From Fibrobacter succinogenes (lineage in GTDB: Bacteria > Fibrobacterota > Fibrobacteria > Fibrobacterales > Fibrobacteraceae): DNA of 51,825 bases. Each line of letters begins with the position of its first letter. The first letter of the stretch is position 1. The stretch is taken from contig CACZAD010000013.1 of NCBI GenBank assembly GCA_902779055.1, forward strand, positions 1-51,825, in the 5' to 3' direction. Under the pieces are notes generated by a model. That model was given only the letters and a program-made list of their open reading frames with translations. It was not told the DNA's origin and made no database searches. Positions 2,424-14,257 of this stretch are shown here, piece by piece. Position numbers and translations under genes: made by a program.

Positions 2424-2987
2424 ATGAAAATCGAGAAGAAGAAAGTTACCGGAAATTCACGTTTGTCGAATGCCACCAAGGCAGGGGTTGCCTCAATGCT
2501 TGGCATGTCCGCCGTCTTGATGAGCGGCTGCTTAAGCGACGCCGAAAGCGGTCAAGTTGTCGGCCCAGTTGAGCCGGACAACAACAATCCAAACAGCAGT
2601 GACGCCTCCGAAACCCCGGAAATACAGTCTAGTTCTTCTGTTGCCGATATTCCGCTGAGCCACGAACGTCTCAGCAGCGAAGCCATCGAAGCACTATCTT
2701 CTTCGTCTGTACAAACGCCGAGCAGTTCTTCTGAAAACATCGCCAGCTCCTCTTCAGAAACGCCAAGCAGTTCTTCAGAAGAAGTTGTCAGCAGCTCATC
2801 CGAAAGTTCCAGCAGCACATTTGTCGAACACGTTCGCAGCTCGTCGAGCGATTCCGTTATTCCTCCATGGCCAAGAGAATGCAACAAAATTGATTCTATG
2901 GGCGTCAACGTCATTATGTGCCATGACGATGATGACTTTCCGCTAGTGAGTATGGTTTCCACATACGAAATGCTTGACTTTTCCTAA
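2424..2987 (+). CDS. Ser-rich lipoprotein-like precursor 1 of a radical SAM locus
   Basis: Protein of 187 residues and unknown function. It opens with a charged leader (MKIEKKKVTG) and a hydrophobic segment ending in the lipobox MSGC, predicting export and lipidation. A long spacer of SSSS blocks, typical of Fibrobacter lipoproteins, follows. The tail carries the motif shared with the next two genes: a hydrophobic residue, Cys, an Asp cluster, then SMVSTYE and D. Start ATG 2424 has AAGGAG at 2412-2417; an upstream in-frame TTG lacks a ribosome site. Leader and tail are conserved among the paralogs while the middle is free, as expected of substrates for the radical SAM enzyme 1.9 kb downstream. 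This copy is the most divergent at the tail (ends DFS, not D[FL]QA). Substrate role is inference. Confidence 0.8.
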   Translation: MKIEKKKVTGNSRLSNATKAGVASMLGMSAVLMSGCLSDAESGQVVGPVEPDNNNPNSSDASETPEIQSSSSVADIPLSHERLSSEAIEALSSSSVQTPSSSSENIASSSSETPSSSSEEVVSSSSESSSSTFVEHVRSSSSDSVIPPWPRECNKIDSMGVNVIMCHDDDDFPLVSMVSTYEMLDFS

Positions 2988-3012
2988 TTGATTTTTGTTG
3001 TCCGGAGGAATT

Positions 3013-3633
3013 ATGAAAATAGAGAAAAGAAAAGTCACCGAAAGTAGCAAACTTTCGGGAATCGCTAAAAGCGCAGCCGCATCTGCATTAGGGATGGCCA
3101 CTCTTTTTTCTTTAAGCGCCTGTATCGAATCGGATCCCGTTTCCGCTTATGATGGTCCCAAATCCAGTTCAAGCGGAACCACGGACAGCGCCAAATACAC
3201 AGATTTCAGCAATTCGTCAGTTACTCCTGAAAACAGCCATTCCGTAGAATCAAGTAGTTCCGCAACGACGGCGAATTCCAGTAGCGACAATTTGTCCAGC
3301 ACGTCGTCCTCAAGTGCAACACAACCGAACCTTCCACGCTTTCCGATGTCCTCCTCTATGTTAGCGGGCGTCGCTATGACAAGCAGCTCCTTAAGCATCG
3401 AAGACATTATTAAAATGAAACGTTCAAGCAGTTCCTCCCAAGAATCCGCTGAACCACAATCCTCCAGTTCATTCGCAGAACCGGAATCATCAAGCTCCTC
3501 CAAAAAACAGTTTCCGATAACAAGAGATTCTCTTACCGTCCCGAACATTCATTTGTGCGAAGACCCTGGCTGCCCAGGAGTACTCATAGACAGTATGGTC
3601 ACCACCTTTGAAATAACGGACTTCCAGGCTTAA
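3013..3633 (+). CDS. Ser-rich lipoprotein-like precursor 2 of a radical SAM locus
   Basis: Protein of 206 residues, paralogous to its neighbours. Leader MKIEKRKVTESSKLSG is followed by a hydrophobic stretch and lipobox LSAC, then a Ser-rich spacer of about 130 residues. The tail has IHLCEDPGCPGVLIDSMV, then TTFE, and ends DFQA, adding a second Cys to the conserved one. ATG 3013 has GGAGG at 3004-3008; the gap from precursor 1 is 25 bases with no terminator, so the two are cotranscribed. It lacks the duplicated promoter block found before precursors 1 and 3. Predicted to be a lipidated, possibly radical-SAM-modified envelope peptide; the modification is inferred from context. Confidence 0.8.
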   Translation: MKIEKRKVTESSKLSGIAKSAAASALGMATLFSLSACIESDPVSAYDGPKSSSSGTTDSAKYTDFSNSSVTPENSHSVESSSSATTANSSSDNLSSTSSSSATQPNLPRFPMSSSMLAGVAMTSSSLSIEDIIKMKRSSSSSQESAEPQSSSSFAEPESSSSSKKQFPITRDSLTVPNIHLCEDPGCPGVLIDSMVTTFEITDFQA

Positions 3634-3637
3634 GCCC

Positions 3638-3727
3638 CCTATATGCAACAAATGCAACAAAAACGACAAGTGCAAAGCCCCAATAATTAGAAATATTCCA
3701 CTTTGTACGAAGAAACTAAGTATATTA
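3638..3727 (+). promoter_or_regulatory. Upstream block 2 of the lipoprotein/radical SAM locus
   Basis: Second copy of the block found at 2303-2392. It begins five bases after the stop of precursor 2 and contains the 28-base element (3638-3665) and the CTTTGTA/TATATTA unit (3701-3727). It probably gives precursor 3 and the radical SAM gene their own promoter. Confidence 0.55.
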
Positions 3728-3760
3728 CAACTAGTGTTAAGATAAAAGGAGGAAACTTTT

Positions 3761-4333
3761 ATGAAAATCGAAAAGAAAAAGGTCACCGGCATTAAAAAGC
3801 CGTCTGCGGTTGTAAAAGGAGCGATCGCATCGGCTTTTGGTATTGCGGCTACTTTTTCTTTGAGCGCCTGCATCGACAATGCAGAAGCCGGTGATGTCAT
3901 AGGTCCCGTCGAAAATCCGGAATCCTCAGGCGACACCGAATCTCAGCCGAGCAGCAGCAGCGTAATCGATATTCCTAAAAGTCAAGAATCTCTCAGCAGT
4001 TCTGCCATTGAAGCCTTGTCTTCAGCGGTAGAAAAGCTGAGCAGCTCATCTGTTGAGCCTATTATAGAAGCGGGCATTTTGCCCCCTTACGAAGATGTTC
4101 CAGATGCCAACAGCAGTTCCGACGCAACACCAGCATCGTCTGCGAACATCCCTTCCAGTTCGTCTGAAGCCACGGAACAGTCCAGCTCCAGCTCCGATAT
4201 CGGCATCCAAATACTCGATCCGGCTCCCATAGATACAAACTACAATCCACGAATACACATCTGCAATGATCCTGATGGCTGTATGATTTTCAGCATGGTC
4301 ACCACGTTCGAGCAGGACGACCTCCAAGCATGA
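3761..4333 (+). CDS. Ser-rich lipoprotein-like precursor 3, coupled to the radical SAM gene
   Basis: Protein of 190 residues with leader MKIEKKKVTGIKKPS, hydrophobic segment, lipobox LSAC and a Ser-rich spacer. The tail reads IHICNDPDGCMIFSMV, then TTFE, and ends DDLQA. AAAGGAGG at 3745-3752 is a strong ribosome site for ATG 3761. Its TGA overlaps the ATG of the radical SAM gene (ATGA, 4330-4333), and that gene has no ribosome site of its own, so the two are translationally coupled. This coupling is the best evidence that these proteins are the enzyme's substrates. Two tail Cys, the Asp and the Thr/Ser residues are candidate modification sites. No protease or exporter lies beside the locus. 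Confidence 0.82.
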   Translation: MKIEKKKVTGIKKPSAVVKGAIASAFGIAATFSLSACIDNAEAGDVIGPVENPESSGDTESQPSSSSVIDIPKSQESLSSSAIEALSSAVEKLSSSSVEPIIEAGILPPYEDVPDANSSSDATPASSANIPSSSSEATEQSSSSSDIGIQILDPAPIDTNYNPRIHICNDPDGCMIFSMVTTFEQDDLQA

Positions 4334-5433
4334 ATTTAGTCCTCTGCCTTACAGAGCAGTGCAACCTCCGCTGTACCTATTGCTATTACAAGGAATCGCA
4401 GGTTGCACGCCAGACGGTCATGGATGACGCGACGTTGGAACAGGCCATCAAGATTGGTCTGGAACGGACGATTTATTTTAAGCAGTCCTATCTGAACATC
4501 ACGTTTTTCGGGGGCGAACCGCTTATCCGCAAGGACGCCATCTACAAGGGTGTCGGAATTGCCAAAGCGCTCGTTGCCGAAGCTCTGGATTGTGGCAGCA
4601 TCGATCAGCATTTCAAGTTGCAGTTTGCCGTCAACACCAACGGCACTCTTTTTGATGACGAATTTTTTGACTTCTGCGAGAGAGAGAAGTTCCGCATTTA
4701 CCTTTCGCTCGACGGTCCGCAATACCATCACGATATCGCCCGCCGCACCGTCAACAATACAGGAAGCTTCAAGGCTATCGAAAAGCACATCCCGCGATTC
4801 GTGAAGCTTGGAGCAGTCGCCTTGAGTACCGTCACCCGCGCGCACGTCAACACGCTTTTCGAGAGCGTCAAGTGGCTGCACGAGCAAGGATTCCAGAGCC
4901 TCACCACGAGCGTGGACTTTGACGGCAAATGGAGCGGCGAAGATTTTGACAAACTCGCCAAGCAATACGAAAAAATGGCACTGTACTGGAAAGAATGCCG
5001 ACAGAAAGGAGAAAAGCTCTTTCTCGGGACAATCCACGACAAGGTAAAGATCGCGCTTATCAATTCGCGATACAGGATGTATTCGTGCCACGTTTACAAC
5101 GGAGCTGTCGGCGTTGCCACCAACGGGAACATTTTCCCCTGCACGCGTTTTATAACCTCACAAAAAGACCCACCATACGTGCAGGGGAACGTATTTACGG
5201 GCTTCGACGAAGAAGCCTGCAAAATCGTCCGTGACTTTCTGGATAGCGACAAGAAGGAATGCGAAGGCTGCGATATACGTTACCGCTGCTGCGCCCACGA
5301 ATGCGCCTGCACATCGTTCTACACAACAGGCACCATCGAAGGCGTTTCGCCCGAAGTCTGCACGCACGAAAGGATGCTCACGGAAATCTGCGATCGACTC
5401 GTCGAAAGCAGCATAGGGAGCAGCCTGCAATAG
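4330..5433 (+). CDS. Radical SAM/SPASM peptide maturase
   Basis: Protein of 367 residues. The radical SAM CxxxCxxC motif is at Cys11, Cys15 and Cys18 (CNLRCTYCYYK), with GGEP at 61-64 in the SAM-binding region. The C-terminal SPASM-like region carries Cys253, 271, 311, 314, 320, 321, 325, 327 and 344, enough for auxiliary Fe-S clusters. Such enzymes make thioether, C-C or other crosslinks in peptides; anaerobic sulfatase maturases are related, but no sulfatase is nearby and the substrate-like genes are adjacent. The protein starts almost at the motif, so it has no N-terminal PqqD-like recognition domain. It may belong to the class of rSAM/peptide systems described from Fibrobacter and Ruminococcus (FibroRumin), which cannot be tested here. 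Confidence 0.9.
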   Translation: MNLVLCLTEQCNLRCTYCYYKESQVARQTVMDDATLEQAIKIGLERTIYFKQSYLNITFFGGEPLIRKDAIYKGVGIAKALVAEALDCGSIDQHFKLQFAVNTNGTLFDDEFFDFCEREKFRIYLSLDGPQYHHDIARRTVNNTGSFKAIEKHIPRFVKLGAVALSTVTRAHVNTLFESVKWLHEQGFQSLTTSVDFDGKWSGEDFDKLAKQYEKMALYWKECRQKGEKLFLGTIHDKVKIALINSRYRMYSCHVYNGAVGVATNGNIFPCTRFITSQKDPPYVQGNVFTGFDEEACKIVRDFLDSDKKECEGCDIRYRCCAHECACTSFYTTGTIEGVSPEVCTHERMLTEICDRLVESSIGSSLQ

Positions 5434-7293: not shown

Positions 7294-8100
7294 ATGAAAA
7301 ACTTATCCATCATTTTGCTTTTCTGCATTTCGGCAATTTACGCCAGCAGCATTCGAGACACCGTTTACGTGGAACAGGTCATTCGCGATACGGTCTACAT
7401 TCCGATAAAATCCAAAACCGACACCATCTACATCAAAAAAGATGATGCTCCAGCTGTACAAGCCCCGCAACAAAAGTGCTGTACACCGACAGAAAACAAC
7501 CCGCTCGGAGCCGACACAACAAAGTACCTGCGCAACGACACGAGCTATACGCACTACAATCTTTATTTGCATTTCGACCTTGTTTCCATTCCATGGCTCA
7601 TCGATACCACATTCACTTCGGTCGGCGGAAATATCGAAGCTTCTTTCAGCCGCAAGATATCGGCTATGCTGAATTTCCGTTACAGCAAAATGCTTCCACA
7701 GCCCGGCAGTAAGGAATTCAACGACGCCATTTACGAAGGGTACATATCCCAATTCGACATTGGCCTGGGATTCCGCCATTACCTTAGACCTTCAAAATAC
7801 AGCTTTTATCTTGAATGCGGCGGAAACGTCATTATCCGCAAATACGACTACATCAACACTTGGGACGAAAAACCCAACCTCTATAATGACAGGCCACATA
7901 CCAGGCACGACACCGGAACATCCGTCGCGCCTTACCTGCACGCAGGCCATGCGTTCCGAGGGAACCGTGCCACATTCGGCTTTGAATACGGATTCTCGTA
8001 CGGATTTATAGACAAGGAACTGCTCCAAAAGGAAACCTCCTACATATCTGCGGGAGTCCAGCTTGATTTGAGATTGAACATCGGTGTGGGGATTTTCTAA
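7294..8100 (+). CDS. Envelope protein, barrel-like, DTVY-repeat N-terminus (1 of 3)
   Basis: Unrecognised protein of 268 residues. A clear signal peptide (MKNLSIILLFCISAIYASS) is followed by a short periodic segment of DTVY/DTIY units (residues 20-50) and a Cys pair. The rest is rich in alternating aromatic and polar residues (FSRKISAMLNFRYSKML, GLGFRHYLRPSKYSFYLECG), ending with DLRLNIGVGIF, which looks like an outer-membrane beta-barrel with a terminal Phe. The next gene starts on the last base of its stop codon (TAATG). Likely an outer-membrane protein; cargo or role unknown. Confidence 0.75.
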   Translation: MKNLSIILLFCISAIYASSIRDTVYVEQVIRDTVYIPIKSKTDTIYIKKDDAPAVQAPQQKCCTPTENNPLGADTTKYLRNDTSYTHYNLYLHFDLVSIPWLIDTTFTSVGGNIEASFSRKISAMLNFRYSKMLPQPGSKEFNDAIYEGYISQFDIGLGFRHYLRPSKYSFYLECGGNVIIRKYDYINTWDEKPNLYNDRPHTRHDTGTSVAPYLHAGHAFRGNRATFGFEYGFSYGFIDKELLQKETSYISAGVQLDLRLNIGVGIF

Positions 8101-8969
8101 TGAAACAATTTAAATGCATTCAATGGATTTTCGTTGCAGTTTTTGCTATCTTCACAAGCACGGCTCTAGCCGTAACGGATACGGTCTACGTTCAAAAGCG
8201 AATCACAGACACGCTTTATGTCGTTTCGCCGCCGGATACCGTTTATATTCAAGAATCCGTCGTCCATCAGCCACAAAGTCAAGAGCAATCAGCTCCCGAA
8301 GCCGCCTCGAAAAATGAATTCATTCTGGAGTACAGCACGGATACGATTCCACCGGCAACAAAGTTTTATATCAACGCCATATCCGGGTTAAATATATTTT
8401 CAATTTGGTTTGGCGCACCAATGTTGGAATTGACCTGGGAAATTGAAAACACCCACAGGGGATCACTCCTGATCAATATCGCCACCATCATGCTTCTTTG
8501 GGAGTACAACATTCGAGATGAGGAGCCAACCTGGGAGGGATTCCGAGGTATCATAAGCCCAGGAATCGGTTACCGTCATTATCTTTTCACATATACCACG
8601 GACAAGACCAATCGCAACAAACAAAAGGTCATTCACAAGAACACGCCTCTCAACAGCAACTCCTTTTATATCCAAGGCATGACTAGCCCCACATTCAAGG
8701 TGGCATACGACCAAAGGCTCAAAACAGAAACAAGCAAATCAGGGAGTCTCGATGTCGGCCTTTCGGCAAAAGCAACTCTGGGAAGCTTATGGAACATGGG
8801 CAACATGCTGTTGGATTTTGGAATTACAATGGGTTACCAGTACTGGAGCGACAAAGCCCGAGGATTCCTCGATTTGTCTAGAAACGATGATGAAATTAAT
8901 TATCACCTTCTCGATGGTTGGACGAGTAAAGGATTATTCTTCGGAACCGCATTTAAGCTAGGATTCTAA
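8100..8969 (+). CDS. Envelope protein, barrel-like, DTVY-repeat N-terminus (2 of 3)
   Basis: Unrecognised protein of 289 residues, overlapping the previous gene by one base and sharing its plan: signal peptide (MKQFKCIQWIF to about TALA), then TDTVYVQKRITDTLYVVS and PDTVYIQ, a Glu/Gln/Ala linker, and a barrel-like body with GYRHYLF, FGITMGYQYW and terminal FKLGF. The shared tyrosine-aspartate periodicity and the ending suggest recent paralogs. No enzymatic motif is visible. Confidence 0.73.
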   Translation: MKQFKCIQWIFVAVFAIFTSTALAVTDTVYVQKRITDTLYVVSPPDTVYIQESVVHQPQSQEQSAPEAASKNEFILEYSTDTIPPATKFYINAISGLNIFSIWFGAPMLELTWEIENTHRGSLLINIATIMLLWEYNIRDEEPTWEGFRGIISPGIGYRHYLFTYTTDKTNRNKQKVIHKNTPLNSNSFYIQGMTSPTFKVAYDQRLKTETSKSGSLDVGLSAKATLGSLWNMGNMLLDFGITMGYQYWSDKARGFLDLSRNDDEINYHLLDGWTSKGLFFGTAFKLGF

Positions 8970-8970
8970 C

Positions 8971-9762
8971 ATGCGATATACAATAGCCATCATTTTAATC
9001 GGCGTCGCTTGCGCATTTTCTCAAGAGCGAGTCATCGACACGGTCTACACGGACACGCACAAGGTCACATACGTTATCGACACGCTCAATTCAGGTAATG
9101 ACAACACAGCAGCACCCGCATCAAGTACAGTTTCTAAAACAGAAGAAGAAACAGATACGCTTGGGATGAACGCGCCGCCTAACAAGCTCAACAAGGTTTC
9201 GCTCTTTTTGATTGCCCAGAATTTAAGCTTTATGCTCAACTACGAACATATGCTTAGTGATTTCTGCAGCATCGCCATTCGATTCGGCTACGACGGATTC
9301 GACTATAAGGATGTCCGCAAATACACCGACGCCGAAGGAACGATACGCACATTCGAAGTTCCTTTGTCCTTCAAATGGTACTGGGGTCGCAGAAACACCG
9401 GCAAGTACCATTACATTGATGCCACGGGAGAAAATCACCACCGCAGCAAAAGCCAAGTGGAATCATACATCCACACGCAGGTATCTCCCCTTATGTACAG
9501 CGTTAACATCCACAGAGCCCAAAGCGATTACAGGGAATTTTTGGACATCAACAAAAAAGAATTCGCTGCATACTTCACGGTAGGATTTGGCGGACACTTT
9601 TGCTATGAACACTTTGTTTTTGGCGCAGAACTCAATTTAGGGACTTTTATCGCAAAGCCTAAATTCCTGAACAAGATTTCTGTATCGAACGATCAATACG
9701 GAACAAGACTTTTGAGCAAATATATTACCGAAAGCATTCTGTCTATCGGCTGGATGTTCTAA
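8971..9762 (+). CDS. Envelope protein, barrel-like, DTVY-like N-terminus (3 of 3)
   Basis: Unrecognised protein of 263 residues starting one base after the previous stop. A short signal peptide (MRYTIAIILIGVACAFS) precedes VIDTVYTDTHKVTYVIDTL. The body has LSFMLNYEHMLSDFCSIAIR and VGFGGHFCYEHFVFGAELNL, strands of barrel type, and it ends SIGWMF. Third member of a three-gene transcription unit. The unit converges with the ABC exporter gene, with only about 20 bases between the stops. Confidence 0.73.
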   Translation: MRYTIAIILIGVACAFSQERVIDTVYTDTHKVTYVIDTLNSGNDNTAAPASSTVSKTEEETDTLGMNAPPNKLNKVSLFLIAQNLSFMLNYEHMLSDFCSIAIRFGYDGFDYKDVRKYTDAEGTIRTFEVPLSFKWYWGRRNTGKYHYIDATGENHHRSKSQVESYIHTQVSPLMYSVNIHRAQSDYREFLDINKKEFAAYFTVGFGGHFCYEHFVFGAELNLGTFIAKPKFLNKISVSNDQYGTRLLSKYITESILSIGWMF

Positions 9763-9782: not shown

Positions 9783-11408
9783 TTACAAGCGAACGATTTC
9801 ATCGCACAATTCGCATACGGATGTGCGGTGCGTTACAAAGATCATCGTCTTGTCAGGGTATGAAGCAAACAAGCGCCTGTACATTTCCTTTTCGGTCGCT
9901 TCGTCAAGCGAAGAGCTGATTTCGTCGAAAAGCAAGATGTTCCCGGGGCGCAAAAGTCCGCGGGCAATGGCAATGCGTTGAGCCTGCCCTTCACTAAGGC
10001 CACGGGCGCGTTCACCCAGTTCGTAGTCCAAGCCATCCGCCAGATCAAAAACGAAATCGGCACAAGCCGTATGCAGCACGTCTTGCATTTCTGCTTCGGT
10101 CGCATCAGGCTTTGCCAGCAGCAGATTATAACGGATCGAGCCATTCATCAAGGTGTTTCCCTGCGGGACATAGACGAAATTCGAACGGGTCGATTCAGAA
10201 ACCGTCATGTTTTCGCGTCCACCATAAATCTGCATCGTTCCGCCTTGCGGCTTCACGAATCCGAGCAAGAGCCTAAAAAGAGTCGTCTTCCCTTTGCCGG
10301 TTTCGCCCATGATGGCCACTTTGCAGCCCGGCTTAAAGTCGTGCGTAAAGTTCTTGACAATTTCACGGTCACCGGCATCATAGCTAAAGCTCACGTTCTG
10401 CAGATTCAAACCGATGCGTTCGTTCGCCTTTTTACCCGGTTCACGCAAGCCTTGCCCATCGGCATGCGATTCGAGTTCCACCAAGCGATCAATGCTAGCC
10501 GTCGAATGCACCAGCTGGGGCACCATTCCAAGCAGCGTCAAAATCGGATGCTGGATCTGCCCCACCAGCTGCAAAAAAGAAGTCATCACGCCAAAAGTAA
10601 TCGTCCCGTCACGAAGTCCGAGCCCGCCCCACACAAACGCAAGCAGGTACCCCAGGCCAAATGCAGAACCGATGGCAAAACGAGCAACGGTCGTGAACCG
10701 AGTACGACGCAACACATCCTTTTCAAGCTTGACCTGCTTTTGATCAAGATGTTTTGTCACCCAGCTTTCGCTTTCGAGCGAACGCAAGACCGCATTAAAT
10801 TCAACCCCTTCCTGCACGAGCATCTGGATTTTACTTTCGCTGTCGCGAATTTCCAGCGTCATTTTTCGTAAGCGGTGAGAGACAAGCTTGCCAACCACCA
10901 ACATCACGGGCGTAATCAAAAGAAGCGCCCAGGCAAGACGTGCATCGAACCAACGCATCAACAGGAACGCTCCGACAAGCTGTATCCCCGTCACAGCCAT
11001 CTGCGGAAGCGTATCGATGATAGAAGAACAGACGGTATCGATGTCTTTCGAAAGTCTCGAAGAAACATCGCCCGAATGGAGTTCGTGTCCGTCATAAAGA
11101 CGTTGCCTAAAGAGGCTCTTGAAATAATACAACCGTAACGTGTTCGACTTTTTCACCAACGCCGAATTCGACATATAGTAATACAAAAGCCGAAGGACAA
11201 TCGACCCCACAACGGTTGCCACAAGCAGAATGACCATCCGCACGACATCATCCGAGGTCCCGGTGCGTATGGTTTCGTCAATAAAGCGCTTGCTAAGCCA
11301 TATCATCAACAGCCCAAGCGAGACACGCCCCGTCCCCAGCAACACGCGGATCAACAGGTTCAAGCGAAAATCACGCGTTCCACGCCATAGCCAGACGATA
11401 TACTTCAT
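9783..11408 (-). CDS. ABC exporter (fused membrane and ATPase domains)
   Basis: Half-transporter of 541 residues in the inner membrane, working as a dimer. An N-terminal six-helix exporter domain spans about 1-310. The ATPase has Walker A GETGKGKTT (~367), signature LSEGQAQRIAIARGLL (~473; Glu instead of Gly in LSGGQ) and Walker B ILLFDEISSSLDEAT (~492), then the switch His in IFVTHRTS. It is the last gene of a five-gene operon; its ATG overlaps the PqqD stop by ATGA. There is no peptidase C39 domain, so a leader, if any, must be removed by another protein, perhaps the S26-like one in the operon. Probable cargo is a modified peptide; this is inference. Confidence 0.93.
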   Translation of the reverse strand: MKYIVWLWRGTRDFRLNLLIRVLLGTGRVSLGLLMIWLSKRFIDETIRTGTSDDVVRMVILLVATVVGSIVLRLLYYYMSNSALVKKSNTLRLYYFKSLFRQRLYDGHELHSGDVSSRLSKDIDTVCSSIIDTLPQMAVTGIQLVGAFLLMRWFDARLAWALLLITPVMLVVGKLVSHRLRKMTLEIRDSESKIQMLVQEGVEFNAVLRSLESESWVTKHLDQKQVKLEKDVLRRTRFTTVARFAIGSAFGLGYLLAFVWGGLGLRDGTITFGVMTSFLQLVGQIQHPILTLLGMVPQLVHSTASIDRLVELESHADGQGLREPGKKANERIGLNLQNVSFSYDAGDREIVKNFTHDFKPGCKVAIMGETGKGKTTLFRLLLGFVKPQGGTMQIYGGRENMTVSESTRSNFVYVPQGNTLMNGSIRYNLLLAKPDATEAEMQDVLHTACADFVFDLADGLDYELGERARGLSEGQAQRIAIARGLLRPGNILLFDEISSSLDEATEKEMYRRLFASYPDKTMIFVTHRTSVCELCDEIVRL

Positions 11409-11674
11409 TCGAGTACGTTAACCTTTTGCCATTCGGCAACAATCGCTGCGACATCGGCCTTGGCGCGTTCGGCATCGACATCATATTCGGCGCAGAGAGC
11501 TTCAGTCAGTTTATCGACGGTAAAGTCTCCCATTTCGGAAGCCTTTTCCCAAAGCCATACCGCCGTATCGTTAAGGCACAGGAGCTTTCCAAAATCAAGG
11601 GCTCCAACACCTTCGCCCATGATAACGTGTTCACCGCACACATCACGCAATACAAATCCATTTTTGATACGCAT
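11405..11674 (-). CDS. PqqD-family peptide-binding protein (RRE)
   Basis: Small protein of 89 residues matching the PqqD/RiPP recognition element fold: an N-terminal strand region (FVLRDVCGEHVIMGEG), the typical LCLNDTAVWLWE turn, then helices with LTEALCAEYDVD and a C-terminal helix. In known systems PqqD homologues bind the leader of a precursor peptide and present it to a modifying enzyme. It starts one base after the S26-like gene stops and overlaps the exporter gene by four bases. No precursor or modifying enzyme such as radical SAM or cyclase lies in the operon. Confidence 0.88.
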   Translation of the reverse strand: MRIKNGFVLRDVCGEHVIMGEGVGALDFGKLLCLNDTAVWLWEKASEMGDFTVDKLTEALCAEYDVDAERAKADVAAIVAEWQKVNVLE

Positions 11675-11675
11675 A

Positions 11676-12137
11676 TTATTTTACCTTGTTAAAAACCCAA
11701 AGAAGATACCTTCTAAAAGGTAACAAAAAGAACCAAAGTTTCGCCACAAAACGGTTCCAAAAGGAGTTAAACGATATCTTTTTTCCGTTCGGTTTTACAA
11801 CCTGCAACACCTTGGCACAAACATCGCTACGCTTGCAGCGTTCCCGCAAAAGCAAATTGCCATCGCCCATCAACGTCACATCGGATCCATCCAAACCGAG
11901 AATGCGATGTATTACATAATGTTTCCCTTGTTTATTATCACTCTCGACAAGAGCAAGAACGACATCACCCCATTGCAACGCACTCGGTTTTTCCAAAATG
12001 ACGCTATCACGACCGCCAACAATAAACGGCAACATACTATTCCCCTTGACAGGGAAAGTCACGCTAACGCCTTCTTTGACCAAGCGAATGGCTTCGGCCA
12101 AAATGACTTCGTCGCCTATTTTTTGAACAGACATCAT
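11676..12137 (-). CDS. S24/S26-family signal-peptidase-like protein (Ser/His type)
   Basis: Protein of 153 residues. GNSMLPFI contains the nucleophile Ser of the signal-peptidase box. The second catalytic region reads VIHRILG, with His where bacterial SipS/LepB has Lys; this Ser-His form is that of SEC11-type peptidases. A C-terminal hydrophobic segment (LWFFLLPFRRYLLWVF) probably anchors it. ATG 12137 is chosen because it overlaps the upstream stop by ATGA like the other junctions; an upstream TTG is possible. In this operon it may trim a leader peptide before export, an inference from context. Confidence 0.82.
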   Translation of the reverse strand: MMSVQKIGDEVILAEAIRLVKEGVSVTFPVKGNSMLPFIVGGRDSVILEKPSALQWGDVVLALVESDNKQGKHYVIHRILGLDGSDVTLMGDGNLLLRERCKRSDVCAKVLQVVKPNGKKISFNSFWNRFVAKLWFFLLPFRRYLLWVFNKVK

Positions 12138-13039
12138 TCCGTTACCGTTTTTAGACAAAGTTTAGCGGCAGCTTCGTCCGGCAAGCAATCAAGATGCCAA
12201 ACCGGAACATTTGACGCCAGCAGATTTTCGGTTTTGTGGAGACCATCGGCAATGGAACGTTCCCAACGCTTGCCCGAAATACAAGGGAGAATGGCGACAT
12301 AGGCGTGAACCCCGAGCAGTCGAGAAATCTTGTTGAACGGGGCTTGCGAAAGCAAAACAAAGCAGCCCAAGTCACAGGAATCGTTCTTGTAGCAAGGCGT
12401 TTTCCCGCTCCACGGCGAGCCATAAACTTTTGCATAGCCGTTACCGTCATTTTCAAAAAAACGCACCACGGGATTATCGTCGTTCAACAATTCCGAGCCC
12501 TCATTGTACTTGAGCCAAAGACGGGCGTGGGTACTCTTGCCTGTTCCGCTTTTGCCAAGGAACAGATAGCCACGATTTTGGTATTTCACGACCGCAGCAT
12601 GGAACAGTGCCGTATTGCAATGAGACGTGGCAATCGCATACAGCACCATCAAAGCGTTGTTCACAGCAAACTTCAAGAGCGGAGAGTTTTCGCCACTCGG
12701 AACAAAGAGCGTTGAAGACTTATAGTCCTTTGCACAGACCATCGTCCCGGCATACATGTCATAGTTGAAGTATTCGAATACAGATTCGTGGGCATCCGTC
12801 AAGCCGCACACAATCCGTTGGCCTTCTTCTTCCTGACGCGTTTCTTCGGTATATGCAGGCACCGATTCACCGGCAACAACCGTTAACGAAAAAAGGCAAT
12901 CGTCCTCGTCCACAGCAAACGGTTCATAGTTGTCCATATTCTGAGCAAAGAAGTCTTCGCTTAGCCCGGAACATACGGACACGGAGAAAACATTCTCAGC
13001 CACCTTGTAAAACCTAGAGTCTTGAATAGACAAAGTCAT
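12134..13039 (-). CDS. HPr kinase/PEPCK-like P-loop protein
   Basis: Protein of 301 residues. It has Walker A GKSGTGKSTHARLW in the middle, then LLNDDNPVV (the acidic pair seen in HPr kinases) and GSPWSGK, the nucleotide-site loop of the HPr-kinase-like family found in peptide clusters. In lasso-peptide clusters such as paeninodin, a homologous kinase phosphorylates the precursor. There is no DNA-binding domain and no HPr gene here. ATG 13039 was chosen over 13096 because AAGGA lies about seven bases upstream and it gives an ATGA overlap with the previous gene; 13096 would add 19 residues. Confidence 0.82.
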   Translation of the reverse strand: MTLSIQDSRFYKVAENVFSVSVCSGLSEDFFAQNMDNYEPFAVDEDDCLFSLTVVAGESVPAYTEETRQEEEGQRIVCGLTDAHESVFEYFNYDMYAGTMVCAKDYKSSTLFVPSGENSPLLKFAVNNALMVLYAIATSHCNTALFHAAVVKYQNRGYLFLGKSGTGKSTHARLWLKYNEGSELLNDDNPVVRFFENDGNGYAKVYGSPWSGKTPCYKNDSCDLGCFVLLSQAPFNKISRLLGVHAYVAILPCISGKRWERSIADGLHKTENLLASNVPVWHLDCLPDEAAAKLCLKTVTE

Positions 13040-14136
13040 AAAGAAATCCTTCGACGTTTTATGCGGAGGGGAAGCGTCAATCGCCAATACTTCCATTCCT
13101 TAAAAATCACATTGACCGGATCAAACGGGAACAAGCGAATAACACGCAAGCGGTCTCTCAACCAATGTTTAGTTTTTGGGGGACGCATCTTTTGTTTGGC
13201 TGTATGTTTTCCAAAATTACCGCCATACACAGCATCGTCCAACAGCCATTTTCCACGCCAGGCATCAGGAGAGCAAAGCATCAAATGGCGATCAAGCCTA
13301 AAGACCTCCCCCAGCAACCACATCACAGCGCTACACACCTTGTGCATATACAAAGAGTCGATTACAGCAAGCGCTTCTTTTCGTTCTGCTTCAGAGGAAT
13401 TCTGCAACAGCACAAAATAGTCCATATACTGCCTAAGTCCGAGACCGCCGCTGTAGAAATGGTGCTGCAAATGAAAAAGCTGCATCACAAGGGCAAATTT
13501 AATGGACGGGGCATAAAAGCCTTCGGGAACGAGCTGCGATTTCAAGAGTTCTTCGCTCATGAAAGCCTGGAATTCCCGTTCCTTGAACAAGTTACCGGCA
13601 GTCGGCCTAAAATGAATTTCGGCAACAATTCCGTTTTCGTTTTTGGGCAGATGGAAGTGATGCTGCAAGGATGTATCTTCGGGGGTCGTAATCAGTTTTA
13701 AATCCAGAAGAAGCTTTTCGACACTTTCGCGGCCGCCTTCGACCCAAAGGTCCACATCGCCACACTGACGGCTGAACGGATCTGAATAAAGTCTTGCGTT
13801 CGCAGCACCCTTCAGCACGGCCGTTCGACACCCAGCCTTGCTAAAAATTTCCGTAAGACGTGCGGCATACTCGTTCATATTTTTATTCATAGCACGGGTC
13901 GTCTCCGCATGGGCGGCCCATCGCATCAATACAGGTTTTGGCGGTAATTCATCTTTAGAGAGCTTCGTAATCGCCACGTACGCCACATCCAAAACGGACT
14001 GCCGCTTTGCCTCGTTATAAACATCCTGCCATTCACTCTGGGAAAGTCGCAAAGGGACACGTTCCCCCTCACGCTTTCCGTACCCCAAAGAAAAGCGCAA
14101 AAGTTCAAACAAAAGCGTATAAGTTGAATTCACCAT
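13036..14136 (-). CDS. Nucleotidyltransferase-family protein (NTP_transf_5-like)
   Basis: Protein of 366 residues, first gene of the operon. The nucleotidyltransferase core shows AVLKGAANARLYSDP and QCGDVDLWV, the D-x-D metal site. Next come regions typical of the uncharacterised NTP_transf_5 family that accompanies PqqD and HPr-kinase-like genes. The upstream ORF extends to 14211, but ATG 14136 is preferred because the terminator of the preceding gene ends at 14167 and a promoter must fit between. Proposed role: nucleotidylation or another modification of a peptide or small molecule. The precise reaction is unknown. Confidence 0.8.
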   Translation of the reverse strand: MVNSTYTLLFELLRFSLGYGKREGERVPLRLSQSEWQDVYNEAKRQSVLDVAYVAITKLSKDELPPKPVLMRWAAHAETTRAMNKNMNEYAARLTEIFSKAGCRTAVLKGAANARLYSDPFSRQCGDVDLWVEGGRESVEKLLLDLKLITTPEDTSLQHHFHLPKNENGIVAEIHFRPTAGNLFKEREFQAFMSEELLKSQLVPEGFYAPSIKFALVMQLFHLQHHFYSGGLGLRQYMDYFVLLQNSSEAERKEALAVIDSLYMHKVCSAVMWLLGEVFRLDRHLMLCSPDAWRGKWLLDDAVYGGNFGKHTAKQKMRPPKTKHWLRDRLRVIRLFPFDPVNVIFKEWKYWRLTLPLRIKRRRISL

Positions 14137-14166
14137 ACCGTGTACACAAATGATATAAAAATTTAA

Positions 14167-14205
14167 TAAAAAAAACAGACGGCATTTAACGTTTATTGCC
14201 ATCTG
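14167..14205 (-). terminator. Terminator after the acidic small protein gene
   Basis: Read on the minus strand, CAGATGGCA and TGCCGTCTG pair (one G-U) around a 12-base AT-rich loop, followed by eight T residues. It separates the gene at 14258-14671 from the nucleotidyltransferase operon. Confidence 0.85.
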
Positions 14206-14257
14206 CAACAATGCTTAAAGAGACTAATTCTCAAAAATTATTTAAAATAAAGACAAA

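What the first reader, a model, noticed from the sequence alone, without database searches (positions are those of the whole stretch)
2424..5433. Three lipoprotein-type substrates feeding one radical SAM/SPASM enzyme: a RiPP-like system on lipidated carriers
Seen: three consecutive genes with the same leader (MKIEK-KVT), a lipobox, a long Ser-rich spacer and a conserved Cys/Asp/SMV-T tail; the last overlaps the radical SAM gene by ATGA, and that gene has no ribosome site. Known: radical SAM/SPASM enzymes modify peptides, and an rSAM/peptide class (FibroRumin) is described from this group. Inference: the tail is modified before export and the lipidated product is displayed on the envelope, with a Ser-rich stalk reaching outward. 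A modified peptide on a lipoprotein stalk would be unusual. No protease or exporter lies next to the locus.
Basis: partly seen in the sequence, partly recalled or inferred. Interest (0 to 1): 0.85.

Follow-up and report, generated by a model that had tools for sequence, protein, structure and literature searches.

The report
Lipoproteins paired with a radical enzyme
A Fibrobacter operon encodes three serine-rich, lipobox-bearing proteins directly ahead of a radical SAM enzyme that is predicted to alter their tails inside the cell before they would be exported and anchored to the envelope; similar gene pairs occur in two other bacterial groups, so this is likely an unnamed way of making chemically modified surface proteins.

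Summary
In detail: three lipobox ORFs (2424-2987, 3013-3633, 3761-4333) share an N-terminus and a tail, and the last overlaps a radical SAM/SPASM gene (4330-5433) by ATGA.

The pairing is not chance. All 49 fetched enzymes at 69% identity or more have such a lipoprotein directly upstream, and 95 of 96 lipoprotein matches lie upstream of an enzyme. Enzyme clades track substrate classes: four lipoprotein classes, plus one clade with small Lys-rich proteins downstream. Lipoprotein-enzyme pairs also occur in a Myxococcales and an Oscillospiraceae lineage, two with the same ATGA overlap.

Against a simple thioether reading: tail cysteines are even in number (86 of 86), which suggests disulfides, and most class C and all C2 proteins have none. 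A G-[ILVMDE]-[PVI] motif learned from class C is enriched in the unrelated Lys-rich partners.

Best reading: the signal-peptide n-region doubles as a RiPP-type leader and the enzyme modifies the tail before export. Chemistry is unknown. It is below cut-off for every named family tested (PapB, FibroRumin, rSAM_w_lipo). The closest known kind is TIGR04133/TIGR04134; this genome carries a separate TIGR04133 gene with its own row of lipoproteins.

The parts
2424..2987 (+). lipoprotein 1 (187 aa): leader MKIEKKKVT, lipobox MSGC (C36), Ser-rich spacer, Cys pair C153/C166, tail block SMVSTYEMLD
   Evidence: no Pfam or NCBIfam family above cut-off
3013..3633 (+). lipoprotein 2 (206 aa): leader MKIEKRKVT, lipobox LSAC (C37), Cys pair C182/C187, tail block SMVTTFEITD
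3761..4333 (+). lipoprotein 3 (190 aa): leader MKIEKKKVT, lipobox LSAC (C37), Cys pair C168/C174, tail block SMVTTFEQDD; stop overlaps the enzyme start (ATGA)
   Evidence: 658 homologues at E<=0.001, 120 listed, and those of the listed that name an organism name Fibrobacter
4330..5433 (+). radical SAM/SPASM enzyme (367 aa): C11/C15/C18; SPASM-like C253-x12-G-x4-C271, then C311-x2-C314-x5-C320-x4-C325-x-C327, then C344; no N-terminal RRE extension
2949..2978 (+). tail block of lipoprotein 1, predicted modification site
3592..3621 (+). tail block of lipoprotein 2, predicted modification site
4292..4321 (+). tail block of lipoprotein 3, predicted modification site
2424..2468 (+). leader of lipoprotein 1 (residues 1-15), signal-peptide n-region; equivalents at 3013-3057 and 3761-3805

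Best explanation
Three Ser-rich, lipobox-bearing proteins with one shared N-terminal leader and one shared C-terminal tail are encoded directly upstream of a radical SAM/SPASM enzyme, which is predicted to recognise the leader in the cytosol and likely modifies the tail before the protein would be exported by Sec and lipidated. Shown: the gene layout, the ATGA overlap, the linkage across the genus and beyond, and the match between enzyme clade and substrate class. Inferred: the signal-peptide n-region (MKIEK.KV...LS) acts as a RiPP-type leader, so no separate leader protease or exporter is needed, because lipoprotein export and signal peptidase II would remove the leader. Inferred: the site in this class is the SM[VI][ST]T[FY][ED]xxD block, while the Cys pair before it forms a disulfide after export. 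Inferred: related enzymes act on G-x-[PVI] sites in class C lipoproteins and in the Lys-rich partners. Chemistry is open. Reactions at backbone or side-chain carbons of the [S/G]-x-[V/P/I] site without Cys (epimerisation, carbon-carbon cross-link or oxidation) seem somewhat likelier than a Cys thioether.
Against: No modified product has been seen. The leader motif of the lipoproteins does not transfer to the class D partners (98 of 1000 shuffles as good). In class A the G-motif is present in only 50 of 85 proteins (31 expected from shuffles), and equating its SMV with G-x-[PVI] is a guess. 20 of 28 matches in the Myxococcales search have no convincing lipoprotein directly upstream; by the script's looser rule 13 of 31 loci with the C-x-C signature have none and 3 of 6 without it have one. 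The class-C-trained score is weak outside the phylum: 14 of 500 shuffles as high for all 14, 124 of 500 for the Myxococcales group. Counts include near relatives, so they are not independent events.
Confidence: 0.68

Rival explanations
1. Ranthipeptide-type chemistry: the enzyme links the conserved tail Cys to a nearby Asp/Glu (or Thr) by a thioether, as PapB, QhpD and CteB do.
For: Best NCBIfam match is the PapB family (210 bits), followed by the nif11, QhpD and SCIFF families; nearest structure is CteB. A Cys lies 9-15 residues before SMV in 84 of 86 tails, and 75 of those 84 have D/E within six residues. PapB accepts Cys-Xn-Asp with n = 0-6 (PMC9413430, passages).
Against: Cys number in the last 60 residues is even in 86 of 86 (2, 4 or 6) with variable spacing, which suggests disulfides. 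Outside the lipobox 16 of 21 class C proteins and 5 of 5 class C2 proteins have no Cys, 2 of 5 in class B have none in the mature part (read), and 22 of 33 class D partners have none. PapB cut-off of 340 bits not met.
Confidence: 0.2
2. anSME-like oxidation: the Ser of SM[VAP][ST] becomes formylglycine, giving a surface aldehyde.
Against: TIGR03942 cut-off is 349. The Asp that follows the second SPASM Cys in anSME is Thr in the window enzyme (T272; alignment; its catalytic role is recalled). Class C and D motifs have no conserved Ser.
Confidence: 0.07
3. The tail is a sorting or assembly signal for ordinary surface lipoproteins, and the enzyme modifies something else or only shares the operon.
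For: C-terminal sorting tails exist in other phyla (recalled); Ser-rich ORFs also occur elsewhere in this genome (9 in a 400-kb sample).
Against: Enzyme clades match tail classes, orphans are 1 of 96, pairs recur in other groups.
Confidence: 0.12

Closest known systems
TIGR04133 rSAM_w_lipo / TIGR04134 lipo_with_rSAM (NCBIfam)
   Same: A radical SAM enzyme beside lipoproteins; this genome has a true TIGR04133 member (G000:C7:512685-513734, 624.5 bits) downstream of a row of lipoproteins with a shared leader.
   Different: Window enzyme scores 20.6 bits (cut-off 425); TIGR04134 does not match the window lipoproteins; leaders and tails differ.
NF047865 PapB-family ranthipeptide maturases
   Same: Best-scoring named family, SPASM-like architecture.
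   Different: 181-230 bits against a cut-off of 340 for the seven enzymes scanned; the family here has an extra invariant Cys (C-x-C, C325/C327) that the Paenibacillus relative and relatives beside SCIFF-like peptides lack (the label SCIFF-like is mine); lipoproteins here instead of small peptides.
QhpD (quinohemoprotein amine dehydrogenase maturase)
   Same: Radical SAM modification of a protein, not only a short peptide; TIGR03906 130 bits.
   Different: Cut-off 453; its substrate is quinohemoprotein amine dehydrogenase with Cys-Asp and Cys-Glu links (PMC8326336 passages).
FibroRumin system (TIGR04136)
   Same: A radical SAM peptide maturase family whose name points to this group of bacteria.
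   Different: 32.7 bits against 400.

Membership tests
PapB-family maturase (NF047865) | score over the curated cut-off (340 bits) | tested here: not met
   210.3 bits
PapB-family maturase (NF047865) | substrate with Cys-Xn-Asp/Glu thioether sites | tested here: inconclusive
   sequence pattern present in 75 of 84 class A tails with a scored Cys, but Cys parity points to disulfides; no chemistry measured
FibroRumin (TIGR04136) | score over 400 bits | tested here: not met
   32.7 bits
rSAM_w_lipo (TIGR04133) | score over 425 bits | tested here: not met
   20.6 bits for the window enzyme
lipo_with_rSAM (TIGR04134) | lipoprotein score over 39.8 bits | tested here: not met
   no match at the window ORFs at E<=1
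anaerobic sulfatase maturase (TIGR03942) | score over 349.45 bits and catalytic Asp after the second SPASM Cys | tested here: not met
   88.5 bits; Thr at that place, (role of the Asp recalled)
radical SAM superfamily (PF04055) | radical SAM domain over gathering score | tested here: met
   59 bits against 29.5
SPASM domain | 7-Cys pattern CX9-15GX4C, CX2CX5CX3C, C (pattern recalled) | tested here: inconclusive
   same order but X4 in place of X3 and an extra C (C-x-C); PF13186 is precomputed for many relatives but not hit by the window enzyme
RiPP precursor and maturase pair | modified core peptide | not testable with these tools
   needs mass spectrometry
RiPP precursor and maturase pair | conserved leader plus linked maturase | tested here: met
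   by sequence and linkage; recognition of the leader not tested
bacterial lipoprotein | n-region, hydrophobic stretch, lipobox Cys | tested here: met
   by sequence only (LSAC, LSAC; MSGC is slightly off consensus); lipidation not tested

The most novel reading that the evidence does not exclude
A cross-phylum class of surface-tethered RiPPs: a radical SAM enzyme with a C-x-C SPASM variant reads the signal-peptide n-region of a lipoprotein as its leader, modifies [S/G]-x-[V/P/I] sites in the mature part, and the lipoprotein pathway alone exports, trims and anchors the product, so that leader removal, export and display need no dedicated genes. The same enzyme family was redeployed on small Lys-rich proteins in which no lipobox partner was found.
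Probability: 0.45. Interest if true: 0.88.

Novelty: new variant of a known kind. Interest (0 to 1): 0.76.

Why it matters
If true, bacteria make chemically modified surface proteins with just two kinds of gene, a lipoprotein and a radical SAM enzyme, using the ordinary lipoprotein route as maturation and display machinery. It would give a function to an unnamed enzyme family found in 64 of 167 Fibrobacterota genomes and in parts of two other groups; Fibrobacter degrades cellulose by surface contact (recalled). It also offers natural multi-site substrates (class C proteins carry several G-x-[PVI] sites each, 122 in 26 proteins) and hence an easy test of the chemistry.

Tried and rejected
FibroRumin, TIGR04133 and TIGR04134 membership: rejected by score. 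A single-Cys thioether as the default: weakened by Cys parity. The lipoprotein leader motif in class D partners: not significant. The PqqD/ABC/S26-like row at 9783-12158 as part of the system: rejected (PqqD matches in 71 of 80 genus genomes, close to a class A enzyme in four of them). C-x-C as a strict marker of the lipoprotein pairing outside the phylum: not borne out. In the VIA-align list no PapB or QhpD structure appears among the 50 rows shown; absence says nothing.

Literature (open-licence PMC library only). FibroRumin: 0 papers. Fibrobacter + radical SAM + RiPP: 3 papers, of which I saw passages of PMC4289311 (the table passages show no RiPP cluster entry for Fibrobacteres) and only the listing for the other two. 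Radical SAM + lipoprotein + SPASM + RiPP: 1 paper, on graspetides, listing only. Radical SAM-associated + lipoprotein + precursor peptide: 0. Fibrobacter + SPASM: 10, judged unrelated from titles and abstract starts. TIGR04133, TIGR04134 and their names: 0. At least two of radical SAM, lipoprotein signal peptide, posttranslational: 308 papers, 12 listed, nothing on point seen in the listing. ChlB structure: 20 papers, 10 listed, not found there. Fibrobacter succinogenes + proteophosphoglycan: 0. PMC8326336 and PMC9413430 were seen as passages.

Sorting errors and dropped rows. L093 and L096 were put in class D by the script and moved to C after reading the frames. Three SMVIT-type tails (L043, L057, L059) were sorted to C by the pattern and left out of the 86 class A counts. 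L026's cut second match (a duplicate) was dropped; two short pieces in L116 were left out of the tree; four places listed were never fetched (G124:C127, G137:C105, two in G137:C14). L096 was left out of the class D tests but is in the 38-against-14.7 count. L261 (a lipobox protein that looks like an unrelated phosphatase, beside an enzyme without C-x-C) and L249 (a twin-arginine-type precursor, no lipobox) were not counted among the 8 of 28.
Full report
Observation. Reading the window confirms three consecutive ORFs with the same N-terminus, a lipobox, a Ser-rich spacer and a tail, then a 367-aa radical SAM ORF that overlaps the third by ATGA. An AGGA lies 12 nt upstream of the enzyme's ATG, too far for a good ribosome site, so translational coupling is likely. 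The lipoproteins match no Pfam or NCBIfam family above cut-off; the enzyme matches PF04055 and scores best with the PapB family (210 bits, cut-off 340).

Linkage within Fibrobacterota. The enzyme has relatives at E<=1e-30 in 64 of 167 genomes of the phylum. I read stretches for all but four of the listed places. Of 114 enzyme rows, all 49 at >=69% identity have a class A lipoprotein directly upstream: 44 overlap by 4 nt, 4 lie 7-16 nt away, and in L035 the enzyme's start is unclear. Within the flanks fetched, 28 of the 49 show two to four lipoproteins (flanks differ in length). In the reverse direction, 95 of 96 lipoprotein matches in 43 of 80 genus genomes lie upstream of an enzyme; the exception is G079:C114.

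Classes. More distant enzymes have other partners. Class B (4 enzymes, 5 lipoproteins) ends in SM[AP][ST]..GH[IV]..P. Class C (22 enzymes in the tree, two of them added) has lipoproteins with several G-x-[PVI] sites; 16 of 21 unique proteins have no Cys after the lipobox. Class C2 (4 enzymes, other genera) is similar. Class D (33 enzymes) has no lipoprotein found upstream but a small ORF starting 11-40 nt downstream in 33 of 33, over 10% Lys in 32 of 33. On a quick maximum-likelihood tree of 112 enzymes, classes A, B and C2 are each one side of a branch, and C and D too once L093 and L096 are corrected (SH-aLRT only, no bootstrap).

Tail. In 86 unique class A tails S, M and T are invariant, E is 83 of 86 and D is 85 of 86. 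Invariant residues use different synonymous codons (T: ACC 37, ACA 22, ACG 15, ACT 12), and the ratio of non-synonymous to synonymous codon differences is 0.85 in the tail and 0.52 in the leader against 1.93 in the spacer (crude counts over sampled pairs). Cys in the last 60 residues number 2, 4 or 6 in 86 of 86 (58, 26, 2); in the 58 with two, they are 5 to 19 residues apart. This fits disulfide pairs and weakens a Cys thioether. It does not exclude paired thioethers, and the 86 include near relatives.

Motif. G-[ILVMDE]-[PVI] occurs 122 times in class C against 24 in shuffles and 38 times in class D against 14.7; Ser linkers of unrelated proteins of this genome show no excess (4 against 4.2, small sample). 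The motif was first seen by eye, so I trained on class C and tested on 29 non-redundant class D proteins: mean best score 2.28 against 0.85 in shuffles, none of 500 as high, and above all 60 draws of ordinary protein segments. The lipoprotein leader, in contrast, does not transfer to class D (98 of 1000 shuffles as good).

Leader. Across 89 unique N-termini of classes A-C, Ile3 is invariant (the finding pattern allowed I, M, L or V there); position 15 is Ser in 53 of 62 class A and 19 of 22 class C sequences, mostly after Leu, Phe or Trp. Sec n-regions are not usually so conserved (general knowledge). The DNA pattern for MKIEK hits the genome four times, three being these genes.

Outside the phylum. 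A scan of genome contigs found an Oscillospiraceae and a Myxococcales record where a lipoprotein ORF overlaps the enzyme by ATGA. Genomes drawn from the order of the first and the phylum of the second (names not told) gave 7 of 345 and 24 of 329 with a match at E<=1e-50. By script and eye, a lipoprotein stands within 250 nt upstream in 6 of 7 loci of the first and 8 of 28 of the second search, the two seeds included. The script's looser rule over 37 loci gives 21 with any lipobox ORF: 18 of 31 with the C-x-C signature and 3 of 6 without it, so C-x-C is no strict marker. In 11 of the 14 lipoproteins the N-terminal part carries a Tyr-Pro before the hydrophobic stretch. Their mature parts show the motif (31 against 16.9, none of 500 shuffles as high), but the second group alone is weak (27 of 500) and the class-C-trained score is weaker still (14 of 500 overall, 124 of 500 for the second group).

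Known kinds. NCBIfam already names a radical SAM and lipoprotein pair, TIGR04133/TIGR04134. The window enzyme scores 20.6 bits there, but the same genome holds a real TIGR04133 member next to a row of Ser-rich lipoproteins sharing an HW[KE]K...FFW leader (three found by script, two more read). So the kind is known by annotation; the family and its features here matched no named family above cut-off in the libraries and no paper in the searches made; and I found no chemistry reported for either in those searches.

Noticed in passing
L151:3671-8577 (G000:C7, about 512.7-517.6 kb): A true TIGR04133 radical SAM gene (624.5 bits) downstream of a row of Ser-rich, Cys-rich lipoproteins with a shared HW[KE]K...FFWxSC leader, not recognised by TIGR04134: a second radical SAM plus multi-lipoprotein operon in this genome.
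   Followed up: partly
window 9783-14211 (-): ABC transporter, PqqD-like protein (PF05402, 54 bits), signal-peptidase-like protein, HprK-like protein (weak match) and a further ORF in a row; looks like a RiPP export or maturation module, and I saw no obvious precursor in the ORF list. The PqqD protein has matches in 71 of 80 genus genomes.
   Followed up: partly
window 7294-9762 (+): Three consecutive secreted-looking ORFs (268, 289, 263 aa) whose N-terminal parts carry repeated DTVY-like motifs.
   Followed up: no
L037:3445-5915 (G000:C1): Divergent to the genome's class D enzyme: a 108-aa ORF followed by a 694-aa radical SAM protein; possibly another peptide-maturase pair.
   Followed up: no
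L241 (match in the genome of L163): A lipobox protein made of CTGGST/CTACTG-type repeats just upstream of a radical SAM gene that lacks the C-x-C signature.
   Followed up: no
L174, downstream of the enzyme (uncultured Clostridiales): A secreted-looking protein with TTTTPDWMTEPIGTMM repeats next to a C-x-C type radical SAM enzyme.
   Followed up: no
L035 (G098:C4): The start of this class A enzyme is out of frame with the aligned rest, so the gene may be broken or the assembly faulty there.
   Followed up: no
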